DNA of 64,000 bases, from NCBI GenBank assembly GCA_028691535.1, contig JAQUZB010000005.1:1-64000 (forward strand), given 5' to 3'. Positions within the stretch are counted from its first letter, which is position 1, and every line of letters begins with the position of its first letter. The position numbers and the translations under genes are program-made. Of the stretch, positions 9,403 through 43,187 are shown piece after piece. A model generated the notes under the pieces. The model made no database searches. It saw nothing but the letters and a program-made list of their open reading frames with translations, and had not been told where the DNA came from. Source of the DNA: Candidatus Altimarinota bacterium (GTDB lineage Bacteria > Patescibacteriota > Gracilibacteria > BD1-5 > UBA6164).

Positions 9403-12195
9403 ATGAAAAAATTAATATTTATAATTGCCTGATTGTTTATAAACTTAAGCCAAACTTTTGCTGCAGTTTTATGAACAAACAACTCAAATAACTTACCTAG
9501 TAAAACTCAACAAACTACAAATATTGCAAATTGAGGTTGGTTTAATATAACTGATGGTTGATTATTAACTGACTTAGCTACTTGGGGAATTTTAATAATA
9601 TTAGGATTTTTTCTATTAATGATAATTAAGAAAACTCTTCAATTAACATTTGAAATTTATTATGCAAAAAATCTTAGGTATTTGAAAATTACACTTCCTA
9701 GAGCAGACTCAAAACTTGATAAAGAAAAAGAAACTAAAAAAGATTTCAAAGAAAAAATCTGATCAATGAGTATGTTTTATAAAGCTATTCATAAATTAAG
9801 TGAAGCTTGATTAAAAGATACATTTATAAATTGAATTTTCGGTCACTCAAAAATATCACTAGAGTTAGTATATGATAAAGGTGAAGTGAATTTTTATATA
9901 GTTACATTTAAAAATTATGTAAATCTAATAAGTCAACATCTGACTTCTACATACAATGATGCTGAAATATTAATTGTAGATCCAAAAGAATGAGGTTATG
10001 TAGATTTAACTGAAGAATGATATCATATGAGATGAGCATCTTTATGAAAAGAAAATGATGATGTTTATCCTATAAAAATATTTAAATATTTAGAAGATGA
10101 TCCACTAAACAATTTTACAAATGTTTTTTGATGATTAGCAAAAGATGATAAGGCAATTTTTCAATTAGTTATAAAGCCAGAACCTTCAAGTTACAATAAA
10201 AAAGCTATAAGAGCAGCTTGATTAGTTGCAAAATGAAAATACAAAAAAGATAAGAAACACTTGTTTTGATTTTTGAGTTTCCTATGGAATCCAATTGTTG
10301 CAATTATTCAATGACCAGATAGTATGGTTGCTTGAAATAATGCTCCTTGAGCAAGTGAATGAGATGCTTATAAGATATTTAACCAAGCAGAAACAGAAGC
10401 ACAAAAAACAATGTGAGAAACTGCTGCTCAACCTATGTTTAAATCATCAATTAGAGTTATAGTATCAAGTAAAAATAAACAAAGTTCTGAAGATTGAGTA
10501 CATGCAATTGTTGCTGCTGCTTCTATGTTTACTGATGAATATAATAATGCACTTGATAATCCACAAATACTTGAAGATGCGCTACCTTGGTTTTTTACTC
10601 CTGTTAGATATTTTTGATTTAAACATAAATTAGTATGACTATTTCAAAATGTATCTTGGTTTTCTGCTGATGAAGTTTCAACACTTTATCATATGCCTGA
10701 TATAGTTTATAATAAATCACCAATTATAAATTGGCTTGATTATAAAAAACTACCTCTTCCGCATAATGTAAAATTTCCTACTGAGTCTACAATTCTAGAA
10801 GAAAAAGACGAAAATTGAAATGCTATTCAAGTTCAAAGAAAATTATGATGATTTCCAGTTTTTAAAGATTGAGTTTTATTATGATGGAACGAATATAGAA
10901 ATAAAAAAATACCTGTATATTTTTCTAGAAAAGACAGAGGTAGACATCATTATATTATATGAAAATCATGAGGTTGAAAATCTGTTTTTATAGGTTATCT
11001 TGCTAGACAAGATGTCCGGAATGGAGACTGAGTTTGTGTAATTGATCCGCATGGTGATCTTGTCGAAGATGTACTTGCTTTTACTCCAAAAGAAAGAGCA
11101 AAAGATGTAGTATTATTTGATCCAAGTGATGATGATAGACCAATGGGTTTAAATATGCTTGAAGTTATTTCATCAGATCCTGAAATTAGAAAAAGAGAAA
11201 TGGACAGAGCCGCAATGGATGCAACTGAAATATTTATAAAGATATTTTGAGATGAAGTTTTCGGTCCTAGAATACAACATTATTTTAGAAATGGATGTTT
11301 GACACTTATGGAAGATGTCGAAGATTGATGAACACTTATAGACGTTCCTAGGCTCTTTGTAGACGATGCCTTTATGAAATACAAGGTGTCAAAAGTAAAA
11401 AATCCTGTCGTTAAATCTTTTTGGGAACATGAATATGCAAATACTTGAGAAAGAGAAAAACAAGAAATGATACCTTACTTTTCAAGTAAATTTGGTCCGT
11501 TTATTACAAACACGACAATAAGAAATATAATTGGACAACCTAAATCAGCTTTCAATATAAGAGAGATGATGGATAATAGAAAGATACTTTTAGTAAATCT
11601 TTCAAAAGGTAAGATTTGAGCATTAAATGCACAATTACTTGGTTTAATATTTGTATCTAAAGTAAATATGGCTGCGATGTCTAGAGCAGATATACCTGAA
11701 ACAGAAAGGAAAGATTTTTATATGTATGTTGATGAGTTTCAAAACTTTGCAACTGATACATTTTGAGAAATACTTTCAGAAGCCAGAAAATATCATCTTG
11801 CTCTAATAATGGCTCACCAATTTATTGCTCAAATATGAGGTAATTCTTGACAAAAATGAGATAAACCTAGTATAAAAGATGCAGTTTTTGGTAATGCCTG
11901 AACAATTATGAGTTTCAAGGTTGGTGCTGATGATGCTGAATATATGGAAAAAGAATATGCTCCACTATTATCTCAACAAGATATTATTGGTATAGCAAAC
12001 TTTACTGCATATTGTAAATTAAATATAGACAATGCTACAACAAGACCATTTGATATAAAAACAATACGGGATAATAATTATAAAAATGCAAAAATTGCAG
12101 AAATTATTAGAGAATATAGTAGAAAAAAATATGGTAGAAAAAAGAAATATGTTGATATGGAAATTGAAGCTAGACTTTGAATAATGCCAGAATAA
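9403..12195 (+). CDS. VirD4/TraG-like type IV secretion ATPase with membrane N-terminus
   Basis: 930 residues. It begins with a signal-like hydrophobic segment and a transmembrane helix at about 60-80. A roughly 400-residue region of unknown fold follows, then a RecA-type motor. The Walker A is GKSGGGKS (residues 520-527; three of its glycines are UGA) and the Walker B is YMYVDEFQNF with Asp777-Glu778. Between them is VCVIDPHGDLVEDVL, as in the DUF87/TraG/VirD4 coupling ATPases. The family moves DNA or protein through type IV secretion channels. Three downstream pilin-like membrane genes with no terminator in between support a secretion or pilus machine. Whether it acts as VirD4 or VirB4 cannot be decided by eye. 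Confidence 0.8.
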
Positions 12196-12283: not shown

Positions 12284-13258
12284 ATGAAAAAATTAATCAT
12301 AACTATACTAGTATTTTCAAGTTACTTATTTATAAACCTGAACAATGCTTACTCTGCAACCATAAATACTCTTCCTTCTGCAAATAATGTACAAATATGA
12401 AATACAAGCGGTTGAAATGGTATAACTAATTCATATTTAGATAAATTATGAGGAAATTGAGATATAAAAGCAGGATCTGAATGAGAAAAATCAGTATATT
12501 ACCTAGTTTACTCAATTGCAAAAGATTTAAAAACTATTTTTTATATATTATCTGGTTTATATTTTTTAATTTTAGTAATTAAATTAATTTTTTCAGAAAA
12601 TACTGATGAAGAAATTTCTAATTTCAAAAAATGATTGATATGGATAACTATATGAATAATGGTTATGCAAATATCCTTTTATGCCATAAATACATTATAT
12701 GCAAGGGATGTAGGATGAACATTAGCAAATAATTTAACAAAAAATTTAATAAGTCCAATAATTAAAATACTTGAAACTGCAGCATCATTTTTCTTTGTTT
12801 TAATTGCTATATTTGCATTTTATTCAATTATAACTGCAAATGGAGATGAAGAAAAAGTAAAAACAGGTAAAATGAGTATTTTCTACTGATTAATTTGATT
12901 TATAGTTGTAAAAATTGCAAAAGAAATTGTAAATGCTAGTTACTGAAAAGTTGATTGTAATGAGACAACTATACTATGAATATTTACAATAAATTGAAAT
13001 AATTGTAATGCTAGTAGTCAAATTGTATGAATATCAGATATAATTATAAAAATAATAAATTGGATGAATTGATTCGTTTGAATAATTGTCATAATAATGA
13101 TAATTTATGCTTGAGTTCAAGTATTATTCTCAGTTTGAGATGAAGATAAGCTATGAAAAGCGAAAAGTTCAATTGTTTACATAGTTATATGAATTGCTAT
13201 ATTAATTTTGAATTACTTTATATTAAGTTTCTTGATTAAACCTGAAACTATTATTTAA
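12284..13258 (+). CDS. Membrane protein with three TrbC/VirB2-like modules
   Basis: 324 residues with a signal peptide (MKKLIITILVFSSYLF) and about six further hydrophobic helices. These form three successive helix-loop-helix units. Each has a first helix ending in a short loop such as SVGDEDKLGKAKSS or TANGDEEKVKTGK, then a second helix. The loop pattern (small residue, Gly/Asp/Glu cluster, Lys-rich) resembles the TrbC/VirB2 type IV secretion pilin fold. It probably sits in the cytoplasmic membrane as a channel or pilus component. It is followed by two related genes 11 nt and 1 nt apart, so it is the first gene of a three-gene unit. Confidence 0.65.
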
Positions 13259-13269
13259 AAATAATAAAT

Positions 13270-14169
13270 ATGAAAATTACACAAAAAATAATCCTGATTC
13301 TCATATCAATATTTAGTATTTTTATTGTTAATAATACTTATGCTGCTATTGAATGATTGGATTGAATAGATAATAAAAAATCAATTTCTATAAATTGAAC
13401 AAGTACTGATATATCAGATACTATAAATAATGTTACATTAAATATTTTAACTAAAATAAAATATGTATTTTCATGAATTTTGCTTATATATTTAGTATAT
13501 GCAGGAGCACAAATGATTATGTCAATGTGAACAGATGATGATAGATTATCAAGTGCAAAAAAATCTCTACGGTATGCTGCAATAGGTTTATTTTTTATAA
13601 ATATGCCTTGAACAATATATAATGCAGTAAAATGAGATAAAACAACTGTAAACTGATGAATATGAAACTCTTGGAGTAATGAAATATGAAGTTCAACAAC
13701 TAATCTATTTATAAATACTGATGTATTTTCAATAACTCTAAATAATACTGTAATTAAATTTCTAGAAATAATCCTTGTTTGAATATCTATAATGATTATA
13801 ATAATAGCATGACTTAAAATAATAACTTCTAGGTGAAGAGAAGAACAAATTACAGAAGCAAAAAATAAAATTATTTGGTCTGTAATATGATTAATATTTA
13901 TTGGATTTATAGAAGCATGGCAAAAATTTGCATATGCTTGAAAAATTGCAGATTGATCTGATATTTTTAAAACACTTGCAAATCTAGCATTATTTCTAGC
14001 ATGACCAATTGCAATATTTTTCTTAACTCTTGCTGGATATTATTATATAACATCTGCTTGAGATGAAGAAAGAGCTAAAAAATGAAAAAGTATAGTATTA
14101 AATACAGTTCTAGCAACTGCTATATTACTAGTATCTTATGTGTTTTTATATGATTTAATGAACTTTTAA
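13270..14169 (+). CDS. Membrane protein with three TrbC/VirB2-like modules
   Basis: 299 residues with a signal peptide ending near AYAA. Three tandem two-helix modules are visible. Their loops read SMGTDDDRLSSAKKSL, SRGREEQITEAKNK and SAGDEERAKKGKS, which align by eye with one another and with the neighbouring genes. In known systems VirB2/TrbC is a single small pilin subunit, so this looks like a fused trimer. A membrane channel role or a VirB6-like scaffold is inferred, not shown. The stop is separated by 1 nt from the next ATG. Confidence 0.65.
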
Positions 14170-14170
14170 T

Positions 14171-14614
14171 ATGAGAAAAATATTTATAATACTATTTTTA
14201 ATATCTAGTTTTCTATTTCAAATAGATAATTCATTTGCAGCAAGTTGAGATAGTGTAAAAGTTAGAGTAACTGAAAAAATTCCTTGAGTAACTTGTAAGG
14301 AAGTAACTGATAAAAATTGAGATATAATTAAAGCAGAAGATTGAGCACCTGCTCTATATGATTGTGAAGTAGAAAAATGAGCTACTCAGATAGTAAAGAT
14401 GCTTGGTAATATAATAAAATATTTTACATATATAGCTTCTCTTGTTTGAGTACTATTTATAGTATATAATGGTATACTATATAGTATGTGATGAGCAGAT
14501 CCCTCATTAAAAGATGATGCAAAAAAAAGAATAATATGAACACTTATTTGATTAATCTTACTATTATTAAGCGGGCCAATATTAAAATTAATAGCTCCAT
14601 GGATTTTCGTATAA
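14171..14614 (+). CDS. TrbC/VirB2-like small pilin-family protein
   Basis: 147 residues: signal peptide, a Cys pair (TCKEV and YDCEVE) in the short exported domain, then one two-helix module with loop SMGGADPSLKDDAKKR. This is the single-module version of the two preceding genes and has the usual size of TrbC/VirB2 family pilin-like subunits. It ends the gene set; a strong hairpin terminator follows. A role as the major subunit of a secretion pilus or channel is the most natural reading but is inference. Confidence 0.7.
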
Positions 14615-14617
14615 TTT

Positions 14618-14660
14618 TAAAAAAAAGCATAGTTATTTTTATATAACAATGCTTTTTTTT
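14618..14660. terminator. Terminator ending the secretion locus
   Basis: An imperfect hairpin (AAAAGCATAGTTAT/ATAACAATGCTTTT) is flanked by A and T runs. It can also stop minus-strand transcription coming from the tRNA region. Confidence 0.75.
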
Positions 14661-14674
14661 ATTTAATTGGTTGC
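14660..14674. repeat. 15-nt direct repeat, copy 1 (copy 2 at 14818-14832)
   Basis: TATTTAATTGGTTGC occurs exactly here and at 14818-14832. In the second copy it covers the 3' CCA end of the initiator tRNA gene. Confidence 0.85.
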
Positions 14675-18875: not shown

Positions 18876-18903
18876 AAAAAGAAGCCTACGGCTTCTTTTT
18901 TTA
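18876..18903. terminator. Terminator between convergent genes
   Basis: The hairpin AAAGAAGCC/GGCTTCTTT with flanking A and T runs can serve both the DivIC-like gene (+) and the pilin-like gene (-). Confidence 0.85.
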
Positions 18904-19329
18904 TAAATCTGAAAAATCTGATGGTAAAGCATCTGGATTTTGAATATTGTCTCAATTATAACTACTAGAGTTTCAAAAAATCTGAGTTCATAATTCTTCT
19001 ATTTTTTGAAAGATTTTTTTAGGCTCAGCATATTTTTCAACATCAAGTCAAAGTAATCTACCTAAAATAGGAAAAACGAATATAGTGAATACTGTAACGA
19101 TAATACCAATAACAGCATATCTAATAGTATTTATAGCTGGTTTTATTTTATCATCTTTACCTCCTGAAAGGATTAAAAGTAATCCTCACCATAAAATAAA
19201 TAATATTGAAAATATTCAAGCAGACAAAACAAATATAGAAATAGCAAGTAATACAAAATCTCAAAATTCCATATTATCTGAAAGTATAGATGCTCAAGTT
19301 TCTATAGCATATGCAGTTTCTATTATCAT
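18901..19329 (-). CDS. TrbC/VirB2-like two-helix membrane protein
   Basis: 142 residues. Two hydrophobic helices flank the loop LSGGKDDKIKPA. This is the same helix-loop-helix module as in the secretion locus at 12284-14614, and the second helix begins RYAVIGIIVTVF. There is no obvious cleavable signal peptide. The C-terminal 45 residues are hydrophilic and end with Asp and Ser. It is the last gene of the tuf-rpsJ-rpmB-rpsP-khpA series, separated from khpA by 19 nt. Confidence 0.6.
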
Positions 19330-39896: not shown

Positions 39897-42800
39897 TTAT
39901 TTAGTTTCAGTAATTGGGAATTCACCCATGTTAGTATATGCGTTAGCATTAATTGAACCAACTAATACATTAGTTAATCTAACTGTCCAAGAAGGAGTAT
40001 TAGCATTAGCATCTATTGTACCATCAATTACAACGATATATGTATTAGTAGAACCAGCATCAACTGTTTTATTACCTGTAAATGTAACAGGACCAGTAAC
40101 AGAACCTGTACCAACTATGTTAGAAACAGAAACTGTATCTTTATAAACAGTTAAAGTAGTAGCACCAGTATAACCTGATAATACATTATCAAATGTTGCA
40201 GAATTTAAAGTAACTGAATCTTTACCAGAAGCAGTAACAGTAAATCTTAATGCAGAAGTAGATAAATCTTTAGAAGAGTTACTAGCTTTAGCAACTACAG
40301 CTTTGTTTTCTTCAATTGCATGTACATTTGAAGCAACAGAAGCAGTAACAGTTGTATCCATATTAACTACAGTACCATTAGTAGATTTAACTTTTGATTG
40401 AGCACCATCTAAATTAACAGAGAATGTAGCACCTGAAACATTAGTATTAACATCAGCAACTAAGTAGTAAGTATTAGTTACATCCATAGCTATAGTATTT
40501 GTAGTATCAATAGATGTAAAAGTAACACTTCCTGAATTACTAGTTGTAGAAGAAGCAACAACTTCATTAGAAGAAGAAACAACTCTAAAGTTAGATAGAT
40601 TATCTAAGCTAGTACCAGTAAATACTAAATCTCTTAATTTAATAGTATCATTTGAAGCTTTAACTCTAAAAGCTAAAACTTTTTGATCTCTATCACCAGC
40701 TAATAATAATGAAGCTTTTGGATTAGAATCACTAGTTGATAATGTTCCTTTAGCAGCAGCAATAGTTAAAGTAGCTGAAGTTGGGAAAGAACTAGGTTCA
40801 GCAGTAACTGAAGTAGAATTATCAACAGCATTTAAAGCAGTTAATTTCATAGAAAAATCACCTGCATCATATGCATCTGATAAGTCTAATTTAACAGCTA
40901 ATTTAGTAGCAGTTTTAGAAATAACTTTACTAGAATTATTAAATGTAACAGTAGCTCCACTTAATGTTTTAGTATCAACAGCAGTACCATCAATAAATAA
41001 TGTAGCAAATACATTATTAGAGTATGTTCCTGAAGCAGTAATAGCATATGTAACATTAGAAATATTTACATCATTACCTTGAGTAACAACAGCTGATACT
41101 TCATTAGCTAAAACAGCTTTAGAACCAACAGCAACTTTAGTTGCACCCATGTTATCAATTCTAGTAACACTTAAGTTAGTATTACCAACAGTAACATTAA
41201 CACCAGATATAGAACCAACTGAAGATTTTACTTCATTTTGATTAGAAACATATTCAGCTTTACCATTAGAAGTAAAACTAGTTAATCTTAAATCATCAAA
41301 TTTAACATCAACAGCATTAGCAGTATCTTTTAATTTAGCATATAATTTAACAGTAGTAGAACCATTAACAGTAGCTAAACCAGAGAATTGAGCAGTACCA
41401 GTAGCAGTAGCTGACCAAGTCATAGTAGATGAACCAATTTGTAAATATAAAGTTGAGAATAAATCACTACCTGTACCATTGAAAGTTAAAGTAGGATCTT
41501 CAAGAGTAATTGCTTGTTTAGCAGTAATTGTACCTTGCATAAATACTACATCAGATGACCCTTTTGCATAAGTTTTAGATAATTCAACAGAAGAATCTCT
41601 AGCGAAAGTTACATCAGCACCAGTAATAGTGTAAGTAGAAAATGCAGCTCCAGTATTATTAACTGTAGATCTGAAACCATTTAATACTTCAACAACACTT
41701 ATGTCAGTTGTATTTCTTAATGATAATTGGTAAGAATCACCACCATTATTTTGAACAGTTTCAACAACAGCTTTTACATAGTAATCAGCAGTTGTACCAT
41801 CTTTAATAATATCATTAACTACAAAAGTTAAATCTTTACCAGAAACAGCAACTTCACTAGAAACAACTACACCATTTCTTTCAAGAACTATATTAGAAAG
41901 GTCAAATAAATCACCATTTCCTAATTGTCTAAAAGTAACAGTTTGAAATTTTAAATCTCTAGTTTCTGGACTTGCATCTTGGTTAATTAATTTAAATCTA
42001 CCTAATTCTAATGAATTAGCTGATTGATTAACAGAAGTAGTAGCAGATGAATTAGCAGTAAAATCAGTTCAAGCAACAGCATAATTAGCAGTTCTTAAAG
42101 TAGAAGTTACAAATGATCCATTATTATTGTTAGCTGAACTTGCAGTAATTTTTCCAGAAAATTGGAAATCATTACCAGAAACAGTAGCTAATTCAACATA
42201 TAAATCAAGAGTTTCAGTAGAACCAGCTTTAACAACTAAAGCAGGAGCAAAAGAAGTAACAGCTAATCTTTCAGAAGAGAAAGAAGCTTTTCCTGATAAT
42301 CTTTTACCATTTTTTTCAAACCAAACTTTAGTTCCAGTAGGTACTGCAGCTAAACCTAATGAATTAAGTTCAACAGTATCAACAGAAACATCAGCAGAAC
42401 CAGCAGTAAAGTCAACTTTAGCGAATAAAATTGATCCAGTACCTGGGATTTGAGTTCCGTTAGCAGCACTCATTGGATTTAATGAAACTTCAACATCACC
42501 TGCTTTAACAGTAGTATCAGTAGTAGTTCCAGTATTAGTAGTATCAGTAGTAGTAGTATCATCACCAGTTAAACCACCAAGTAGTTCATCTAGGATATTA
42601 CCCATATCATCTTGTCCTGATGCCATAGCATTAGAACCAGCTTCAAATACAAAACCTCTAGTAGCAGCAGTATCATAGTTTGTAAATGATGAAACAACAC
42701 CATTAGCAACTGCGAATGCAACTACTTGTTCTTGCCAAGATGTACCTAAAGTAGCATCAAAAGCGTATTCTGAACCGAATGCAGCTTTAACAACCATACC

Positions 42801-43187
42801 AACAGCTTCAGCTTTTGAGATGTTTGCTTCAGGTCTAAATTCAGCATTTTTTGCAACTAAACCAGCGTTAGCTAGAGCGTTAACAGATGACCAAGCCCAA
42901 GTATTAGGAGTAGTTTCAGTAACATCTGAAAATACAGGAGCATAAGTAGTTTCTTTATCAAGACCAGCAATACCTCTAGCAACTGCAGCGATTTCTTGTC
43001 TTAATACATTTTGATCTAAATTGTAAGCAGCACTGTTTGATGAGTGGTTTACAATTATATTAGCTTCAGCTAAAGCGTTTGCAGCTTCAACTTCAGAAGT
43101 GCTGTATGCAGATACTCCAGTAGAGAAAATCCCTGAAACAAGAGTAACTAATGCAATAGCAGCAGTAGTTTTTTTAAATAAATTCAT
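39897..43187 (-). CDS. S-layer-like surface protein with SLH-type N-terminus
   Basis: 1096 residues. A Sec signal peptide (cleavage near VSAYS) is followed by a SLH-like region (about 30-190) with FSDVTE, WAWSSVNALANAGL and FRPEANISKAEAVGM. A Thr/Asp linker of near-repeats comes next (about 205-225), then about 850 residues of Thr/Ser/Val/Asn-rich beta-sandwich sequence. SLH regions bind cell-wall polymers; this is the likely main surface layer. No Cys is visible. Codon use is special: I find only one in-frame UGA (42069-42071, residue 373), and the other glycines use GGN. The start has no Shine-Dalgarno. Confidence 0.85.

What the first reader, a model, noticed from the sequence alone, without database searches (positions are those of the whole stretch)
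12284..14614. Tandem-fused pilin-like modules: 3 + 3 + 1
Seen: two adjacent membrane proteins each carry three copies of a helix - Gly/Asp/Glu loop - Lys - helix unit, and the third has one copy. The loops (SAGDEERAKKGKS, SRGREEQITEAKNK, TANGDEEKVKTGK) correspond. Known: VirB2/TrbC pilins are single modules. Inference: fused trimers could form a fixed-stoichiometry ring or channel next to the VirD4-like ATPase, a design different from classical type IV secretion.
Basis: partly seen in the sequence, partly recalled or inferred. Interest (0 to 1): 0.65.

Follow-up and report, generated by a model that had tools for sequence, protein, structure and literature searches.

The report
Fused triple pilins beside a T4SS-type ATPase
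A group of tiny, host-dependent bacteria carries two membrane proteins that are each three copies of a secretion-pilus building block joined in a fixed order, next to a DNA- or protein-pumping motor, which suggests that the base or pore of their secretion machine may be built from fused pilus subunits.

Summary
Read with genetic code 25 (TGA=Gly), 12284-14614 holds three membrane proteins with 3, 3 and 1 copies of a helical hairpin of the Pfam family T4SS_pilin. A profile trained only on single-module pilins from other Patescibacteria loci finds exactly 3+3+1; 80 control membrane proteins score near zero. AlphaFold models, at moderate confidence, show three hairpins in each of the two larger proteins.

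The 3-3-1 gene set follows a VirD4-type ATPase in 27 of about 56 sampled TGA=Gly Gracilibacteria loci (many of the others are cut by contig ends). Full-length relatives of both triple proteins occur in the 20 sampled genomes of the order, one of them split by contig ends. Standard-code relatives carry two adjacent triple genes with the same 1-2-3 module order, so the fusion is old. Relatives outside these groups have 1, 2 or 4 modules, so three is not universal.

My best reading is a T4SS membrane platform or pore made of fused VirB2-like pilins, in lineages where VirB6 is mostly undetectable. The VirB6-like role and any fixed-stoichiometry ring are inference. I found no description of fused VirB2-like pilins in the papers I searched.

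The parts
12284..13258 (+). Gene A: signal peptide, extracytoplasmic N-terminal segment, three T4SS_pilin hairpins (324 aa, code 25)
12485..12697 (+). Module A1 (aa 68-138), the most divergent; loop SENTDEEISNFKKG
12716..12943 (+). Module A2 (aa 145-220); loop TANGDEEKVKTGK
13034..13237 (+). Module A3 (aa 251-318); loop SVGDEDKLGKAK
12944..13033 (+). A linker between modules 2 and 3; a cysteine in each of its two segments in 30 of 34 orthologs (possible disulfide, so probably extracytoplasmic)
13270..14169 (+). Gene B: signal peptide and three T4SS_pilin hairpins (299 aa)
13411..13632 (+). Module B1 (aa 48-121)
13717..13938 (+). Module B2 (aa 150-223); loop SRGREEQITEAKNK
13945..14163 (+). Module B3 (aa 226-298); loop SAGDEERAKKGKS
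14171..14614 (+). Gene C: signal peptide, N-terminal segment with two Cys, one T4SS_pilin hairpin (147 aa)
14381..14599 (+). Module C1 (aa 71-143)
9403..12195 (+). VirD4/HerA-type ATPase (T4SS-DNA_transf, TrwB_AAD_bind), 930 aa, one TM after a signal-peptide-like segment
12195..12226 (+). Terminator-like hairpin between the ATPase gene and A (-14.2 kcal/mol, z -5.0)
14618..14661 (+). Hairpin with a T run just after C (51-nt stretch folds to -16.4 kcal/mol, z -6.4; not listed by the terminator scan, which needs 3 G-C pairs)
18901..19329 (-). Separate single-module T4SS_pilin gene (142 aa)

Best explanation
A, B and C are membrane components of the Gracilibacteria type IV secretion system, made from VirB2-like pilin hairpins. 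A and B are old fusions of three same-way-round hairpins (N and C termini and linkers outside, charged G-D/E-E-K loops in the cytoplasm). I propose that they stay in the membrane as a VirB6-like pore or pilus-assembly base, with the cytoplasmic loops facing the VirD4/VirB4 ATPases, while separate single-module pilins elsewhere in the genome form the filament. Shown computationally: module identity, count, order, topology, conservation, gene linkage. Inferred: membrane-resident role, VirB6-like function, contact with the ATPases.
For: Pilin identity and 3+3+1 count. Hairpin models. In the PDB second look, module B2 matched the Aeropyrum conjugation pilus chain 8dfu at Z 8.1, rmsd 3.2, 76 residues, within the range common for helical hairpins, so weak. 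Positive-inside pattern: loops carry 1.8-2.9 K+R per 10 residues, linkers and termini 0.5-1.2, so all hairpins point the same way. Cleavage-type AxA motifs are almost absent from linkers (at most 4 of 34), against a polyprotein. Module order 1-2-3 is the best pairing for all six gene pairs among A, B and the two standard-code genes X and Y. Purifying selection: dN/dS 0.09-0.20. D4-A-B-C conserved in the TGA=Gly Gracilibacteria. A-type gene beside VirB4 and D4 in L073 and L102, and beside VirB4 in L100. PF04610 TrbL/VirB6: no match in this genome; 2 of about 38 genomes of this class against 133 of about 342 others. Gly-codon usage of A/B/C (TGA 71-83%) is that of ordinary genes; one C5 single-module pilin has 33%, nearer EF-Tu at 23%. 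Literature: the CedA N-terminal region is homologous to the CedA1 pilin, and VirB2 and VirB6 show the same at lower significance (PMC9905601); VirB6 reported scarce or absent in Gracilibacteria (PMC12102498).
Against: No sequence or fold match of the whole A or B protein to VirB6 or CedA. TrbL proteins recovered from three Patescibacteria loci show no pilin-module similarity. VirB6 may simply be too diverged to detect. Some relatives keep only A beside D4, or have 4+4 modules, so number and partners vary. A terminator-like hairpin separates D4 from A. The T4CP-like ATPase is not essential in the one Patescibacterium tested (PMC12102498). The codon-usage argument rests on few Gly codons.
Confidence: 0.42

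Rival explanations
1. A and B are true pilus subunits: 3-hairpin pilins that polymerise (alone or with C and other single pilins) into the filament, so one chain supplies three lattice positions.
For: Same family as the filament-type pilins, signal peptides, uniform hairpin orientation. Pilin arrays of 2-11 genes are common in Patescibacteria, and 2- and 4-module fusions sit inside such arrays in relatives.
Against: Gly-codon usage is not that of an abundant protein. Long linkers with conserved Cys and, in L096, a TSP3-bearing N-terminal extension fit poorly in a dense pilus lattice. Old fixed module order with divergent modules. Two different triples are conserved rather than one.
Confidence: 0.25
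2. They are minor components of the pilus (tip, base or cap), or an adhesin/scaffold, not the pore.
For: In standard-code relatives two triple genes are followed by a single-module protein of up to about 1650 aa and by a PKD-repeat protein; extracytoplasmic N-terminal extensions on some A proteins.
Against: The A, B and C of the window have only short extracytoplasmic parts; linkage is to the ATPases.
Confidence: 0.2
3. They are accessory partners of an exapted VirD4/HerA-like DNA or protein translocase that is not a secretion system (for example DNA uptake, as in archaeal Ced).
For: Most Patescibacteria VirD4-like genes lie away from virB4 and one was non-essential (PMC12102498). D4-A-B-C lies away from VirB4 in this genome. 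Ced uses a pilin, a polytopic channel and a HerA/VirB4-like ATPase for DNA import.
Against: D4-A sits with VirB4 in L073 and L102, and an A-type gene with VirB4 in L100.
Confidence: 0.1
4. The repeats are an accident of hydrophobic composition, and the proteins are unrelated multi-TM proteins.
For: Module identity is low (about 11-45%); AlphaFold confidence is moderate.
Against: Curated Pfam model above cut-off with three stretches each, independent HMM with clean controls, conserved glycine-acidic-lysine loops, order conservation.
Confidence: 0.03

Closest known systems
VirB2-like pilins / Pfam PF18895 T4SS_pilin (including the Patescibacteria pilin arrays, PMC12102498)
   Same: Same hairpin module, signal peptide, charged cytoplasmic loop, T4SS gene context; C is an ordinary member
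   Different: Known members are described as single-module proteins in gene arrays of 2-11; A and B carry three fused, diverged modules in a fixed order
VirB6 / TrbL (PF04610) inner-membrane pore and pilus base
   Same: Polytopic membrane protein in a T4SS; in this class VirB6 is largely undetectable, leaving that slot apparently empty
   Different: No PF04610 match; built of recognisable pilin repeats; TrbL proteins of other Patescibacteria show no pilin module
Archaeal CedA/CedA1 and TedA/TedC (PMC9905601)
   Same: Polytopic channel plus pilin plus HerA/VirB4-like ATPase; the CedA N-terminal region is reported to be homologous to the pilin CedA1
   Different: Archaeal; whole-length tandem pilin repeats in CedA are not reported there; I could not compare sequences directly
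Mbov_0395 family pilin-like conjugal transfer protein (NCBIfam NF045849, mycoplasma ICE)
   Same: Matches all modules; B slightly above the cut-off, 40.4 against 40 bits
   Different: Single-module protein of an integrative conjugative element

Membership tests
PF18895 T4SS_pilin / VirB2-like pilin | Match to the family profile above the curated cut-off | tested here: met
   A 54.5, B 74.7, C 37.5 bits against 26.6
PF18895 T4SS_pilin / VirB2-like pilin | Two-helix hairpin with charged cytoplasmic loop after a Sec signal peptide | tested here: met
   Models and positive-inside counts; SPase-like site in 32/34 A and 27/31 B orthologs
PF18895 T4SS_pilin / VirB2-like pilin | One module per protein | tested here: not met
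   A and B have three; C has one. So A and B are fusions derived from the family, not ordinary members
PF18895 T4SS_pilin / VirB2-like pilin | Assembles into a filament | not testable with these tools
   Needs cryo-EM or pilus purification
VirB6 / TrbL | Match to PF04610 | tested here: not met
   No PF04610 match anywhere in the genome at E<=1
VirB6 / TrbL | Polytopic inner-membrane protein in a T4SS | tested here: met
   Six predicted TM helices after the signal peptide; D4 adjacent, VirB4 adjacent in some relatives
VirB6 / TrbL | Fold like R388 TrwI/VirB6 | tested here: inconclusive
   No significant Foldseek match, VirB6 not among the listed rows, moderate-confidence models
VirB6 / TrbL | Forms a C5 pore/pilus base | not testable with these tools
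   No oligomer prediction available
Type IV secretion system (gene set) | VirB4 ATPase in the genome | tested here: met
   G000 C20, P-loop_TraG protein of 612 aa
Type IV secretion system (gene set) | PrgI/VirB3 and VirD4-type ATPase | tested here: met
   PF12666 on C15; T4SS-DNA_transf at 9403-12195
Type IV secretion system (gene set) | A/B linked to VirB4 | tested here: met
   D4-A-...-SpoIIE-VirB4 in L073 and L102; A-type gene-...-SpoIIE-VirB4 in L100. Not linked in the window's own genome

The most novel reading that the evidence does not exclude
In Gracilibacteria the central inner-membrane pore and assembly base of the T4SS (the VirB6 slot) has been replaced by proteins that are three fused VirB2-like pilins, giving a living example of a pilin-to-pore transition and supporting a shared origin of VirB2 and VirB6.
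Probability: 0.3. Interest if true: 0.82.

Novelty: new variant of a known kind. Interest (0 to 1): 0.57.

Why it matters
Beltran et al. (PMC9905601) reported that CedA/VirB6-type pores and CedA1/VirB2-type pilins share sequence and asked which came from which. Proteins that are plainly two, three or four pilins in a row, sitting with T4SS ATPases in lineages where VirB6 is mostly undetectable, make that question directly testable. They also give a component list to try for the secretion machine of Gracilibacteria, a host-dependent group in which T4SS parts are expressed (PMC11452946) but VirB6 could not be found.

Tried and rejected
Chance or composition as the cause of the repeats: rejected by the independent HMM and controls. 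Polyprotein cleaved into single pilins: AxA motifs rare in linkers. Recent tandem duplication within A or B: rejected, modules are diverged and positionally conserved across the class; a recent-looking 4-module expansion does exist elsewhere (L162). Strict six-hairpin ring matching a hexameric ATPase: not favoured, because 4+4 and A-only variants exist. Mobile-element origin: no plasmid, phage or viral-contig relatives of B. Foldseek and VIA-align of both models against the PDB: no significant Foldseek match, only hairpin-level resemblances; of T4SS-related chains only 8dfu appeared among the listed rows. PDB sequence search with full-length and module profiles: nothing relevant. Homology of TrbL/VirB6 proteins of other Patescibacteria to the module: none seen in the three TrbL ORFs recovered from eight loci.

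Full report
What is there. The window comes from a bacterium that reads TGA as glycine. Under table 25, region 12284-14614 holds three adjacent genes, A (324 aa), B (299 aa) and C (147 aa), preceded by a 930-aa VirD4/HerA-type ATPase at 9403-12195. A, B and C are tightly spaced (11 bp and 1 bp). A terminator-like hairpin lies between the ATPase gene and A, and a second hairpin with a T run follows C. So A-B-C is probably one transcript, and the ATPase may be another.

Are the repeats real. Pfam T4SS_pilin (PF18895) is matched in three stretches in A (54.5 bits), three in B (74.7) and one in C (37.5), with a cut-off of 26.6. To avoid circularity I built a profile from 65 single-module pilins of other Patescibacteria loci. 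It finds three, three and one modules (A 17.5, 37.9, 54.9; B 32.6, 43.7, 55.8; C 42.0 bits). The best of 80 control proteins with four or more TM helices reaches 2.2 bits; these controls had been screened beforehand with a broader pilin profile. Profile-profile scores between all module pairs (31-88) exceed column-shuffled controls (median 11, maximum 22). AlphaFold2, with 31-34 orthologs, draws three successive helix-turn-helix hairpins in each protein; mean pLDDT is 62.7 (A) and 69.4 (B), so the hairpins are credible and their packing is not.

Topology. Across 34 A and 31 B orthologs the intra-hairpin loops carry 1.8-2.9 K+R per 10 residues, against 0.5-1.2 for N-termini and linkers. Signal-peptidase-like sites sit after the first hydrophobic segment in 32 of 34 A and 27 of 31 B orthologs, and AxA motifs are nearly absent from linkers. 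A has a cysteine in each of two segments of linker 2-3 in 30 of 34 orthologs, and one A ortholog (L096) has an N-terminal extension with TSP3 repeats. The simplest reading is signal peptide removed, N and C termini and linkers outside, loops in the cytoplasm, all three hairpins in the same orientation.

How conserved. In loci fetched around relatives of the ATPase, 27 of about 56 TGA=Gly loci show exactly 3, 3, 1 modules; the others are cut by contig ends, keep only one A-type triple, or lack adjacent pilins. Distinct complete ORFs over all loci: 127 with three modules, 107 with one, 13 with two, 6 with four. Full-length B matches occur in the 20 sampled genomes of the order, and full-length A matches too, apart from one genome in which A is split between contigs. 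In standard-code members of the class, two adjacent triple-module genes (X, Y; 24 pairs) occur. Module position is conserved: for all six pairs among A, B, X and Y the 1-1, 2-2, 3-3 pairing scores highest, though narrowly for X-Y (334 against 332). So the triple fusion most likely predates the split of these lineages and was duplicated as a unit. dN/dS against four close relatives is 0.09-0.20. Outside these groups 2-module (L161, L164, L165) and 4-module proteins (L162, L163; 4+4 in L159/L160) exist, some inside single-pilin arrays. Fusion is thus recurrent, and three is a lineage habit, not a rule.

What it belongs to. The genome also has VirB4 (contig 20), PrgI next to a TrsD-like gene and a single-module pilin (contig 15), a second VirD4-like ATPase, a four-gene single-module pilin array (contig 2) and a pilin pair (contig 5). 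In L073 and L102 the ATPase and A-type gene are followed by a RadA-like gene, a SpoIIE phosphatase and VirB4. L100 has the A-type gene and VirB4 in the same order but no labelled ATPase, and four further loci have D4-SpoIIE-VirB4. This ties A to the T4SS. PF04610 (TrbL/VirB6) is not found in this genome. Among 380 genomes of the phylum it matches about 133 of 342 outside this class but only 2 of about 38 inside it, one of them weakly (the class counts are read from the listing). Quinonero-Coronel et al. report the same scarcity, and describe pilin gene arrays but mention no fused pilins in the passages read (PMC12102498).

Mechanism. Best-supported reading: A and B are low-copy, membrane-resident T4SS parts made from VirB2-like hairpins, filling a VirB6-like role (pore or pilus base), while a single-module pilin forms the filament. 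In R388, VirB6 is the proposed base on which VirB2 assembles (PMC9259494). Beltran et al. found the CedA N-terminus homologous to the CedA1 pilin, and the same for VirB2/VirB6 at lower significance (PMC9905601). A hint on copy number: A, B and C use TGA for 71-83% of glycines, as ordinary genes do, whereas one contig-5 single-module pilin (33%) leans towards EF-Tu (23%) and the S-layer protein (1%); counts are small. Not shown: membrane residence, contact with ATPases, pore formation, any ring stoichiometry.

Limits. Structural searches gave no significant Foldseek match. One hairpin of B matched the Aeropyrum conjugation pilus (8dfu, Z 8.1, rmsd 3.2, 76 residues), which is within the common range for helical hairpins. 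TrbL proteins recovered from three other Patescibacteria loci have no pilin-module similarity, so if A and B replace VirB6 it is by analogy or very old homology. The literature library holds only open-licence papers.

Noticed in passing
window 39897-43187 (-): A 1096-aa S-layer-like protein uses TGA for only 1 of 79 glycines (GGT for 61), while most genes checked in the window use TGA for 65-88%; EF-Tu 23%. TGA-Gly usage may mark expression level in this code-25 genome.
   Followed up: partly
L155, L156, L157, L158, L174 (standard-code members of the class): The two triple-pilin genes are followed by a single-module protein of up to about 1650 aa (at least 1074 in the cut L156); in L155 and L157 the next gene is a PKD-repeat membrane protein, and in L157 it also weakly matches T4SS_pilin.
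   Followed up: partly
L020:7080-10258; L073, L081, L083, L087, L091, L100, L102: A SpoIIE-type phosphatase gene lies directly upstream of VirB4 in seven related loci (one with a short ORF between) and in the window's own genome, suggesting phospho-regulation of this T4SS.
   Followed up: partly
L162:3786-4880 and L163:1292-2536: Four-module fused pilins inside a single-pilin array; in L162 modules 1 and 2 are nearly identical, so the expansion looks recent.
   Followed up: no
window 9403-12195: The ATPase matches PHROG family phrog_5156 (unknown function) at E 9e-75, so relatives occur in records classed as phage; origin unclear.
   Followed up: no
L063 and L096 A orthologs: N-terminal extensions with thrombospondin type 3-like D-x-D-x-D-G repeats before the three hairpins (for L096; visible in the alignment for L063).
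   Followed up: no
L017:10775-13517: Four single-module pilin genes in tandem followed by a protein weakly resembling zinc metallopeptidases (Peptidase_Mx, below cut-off).
   Followed up: no
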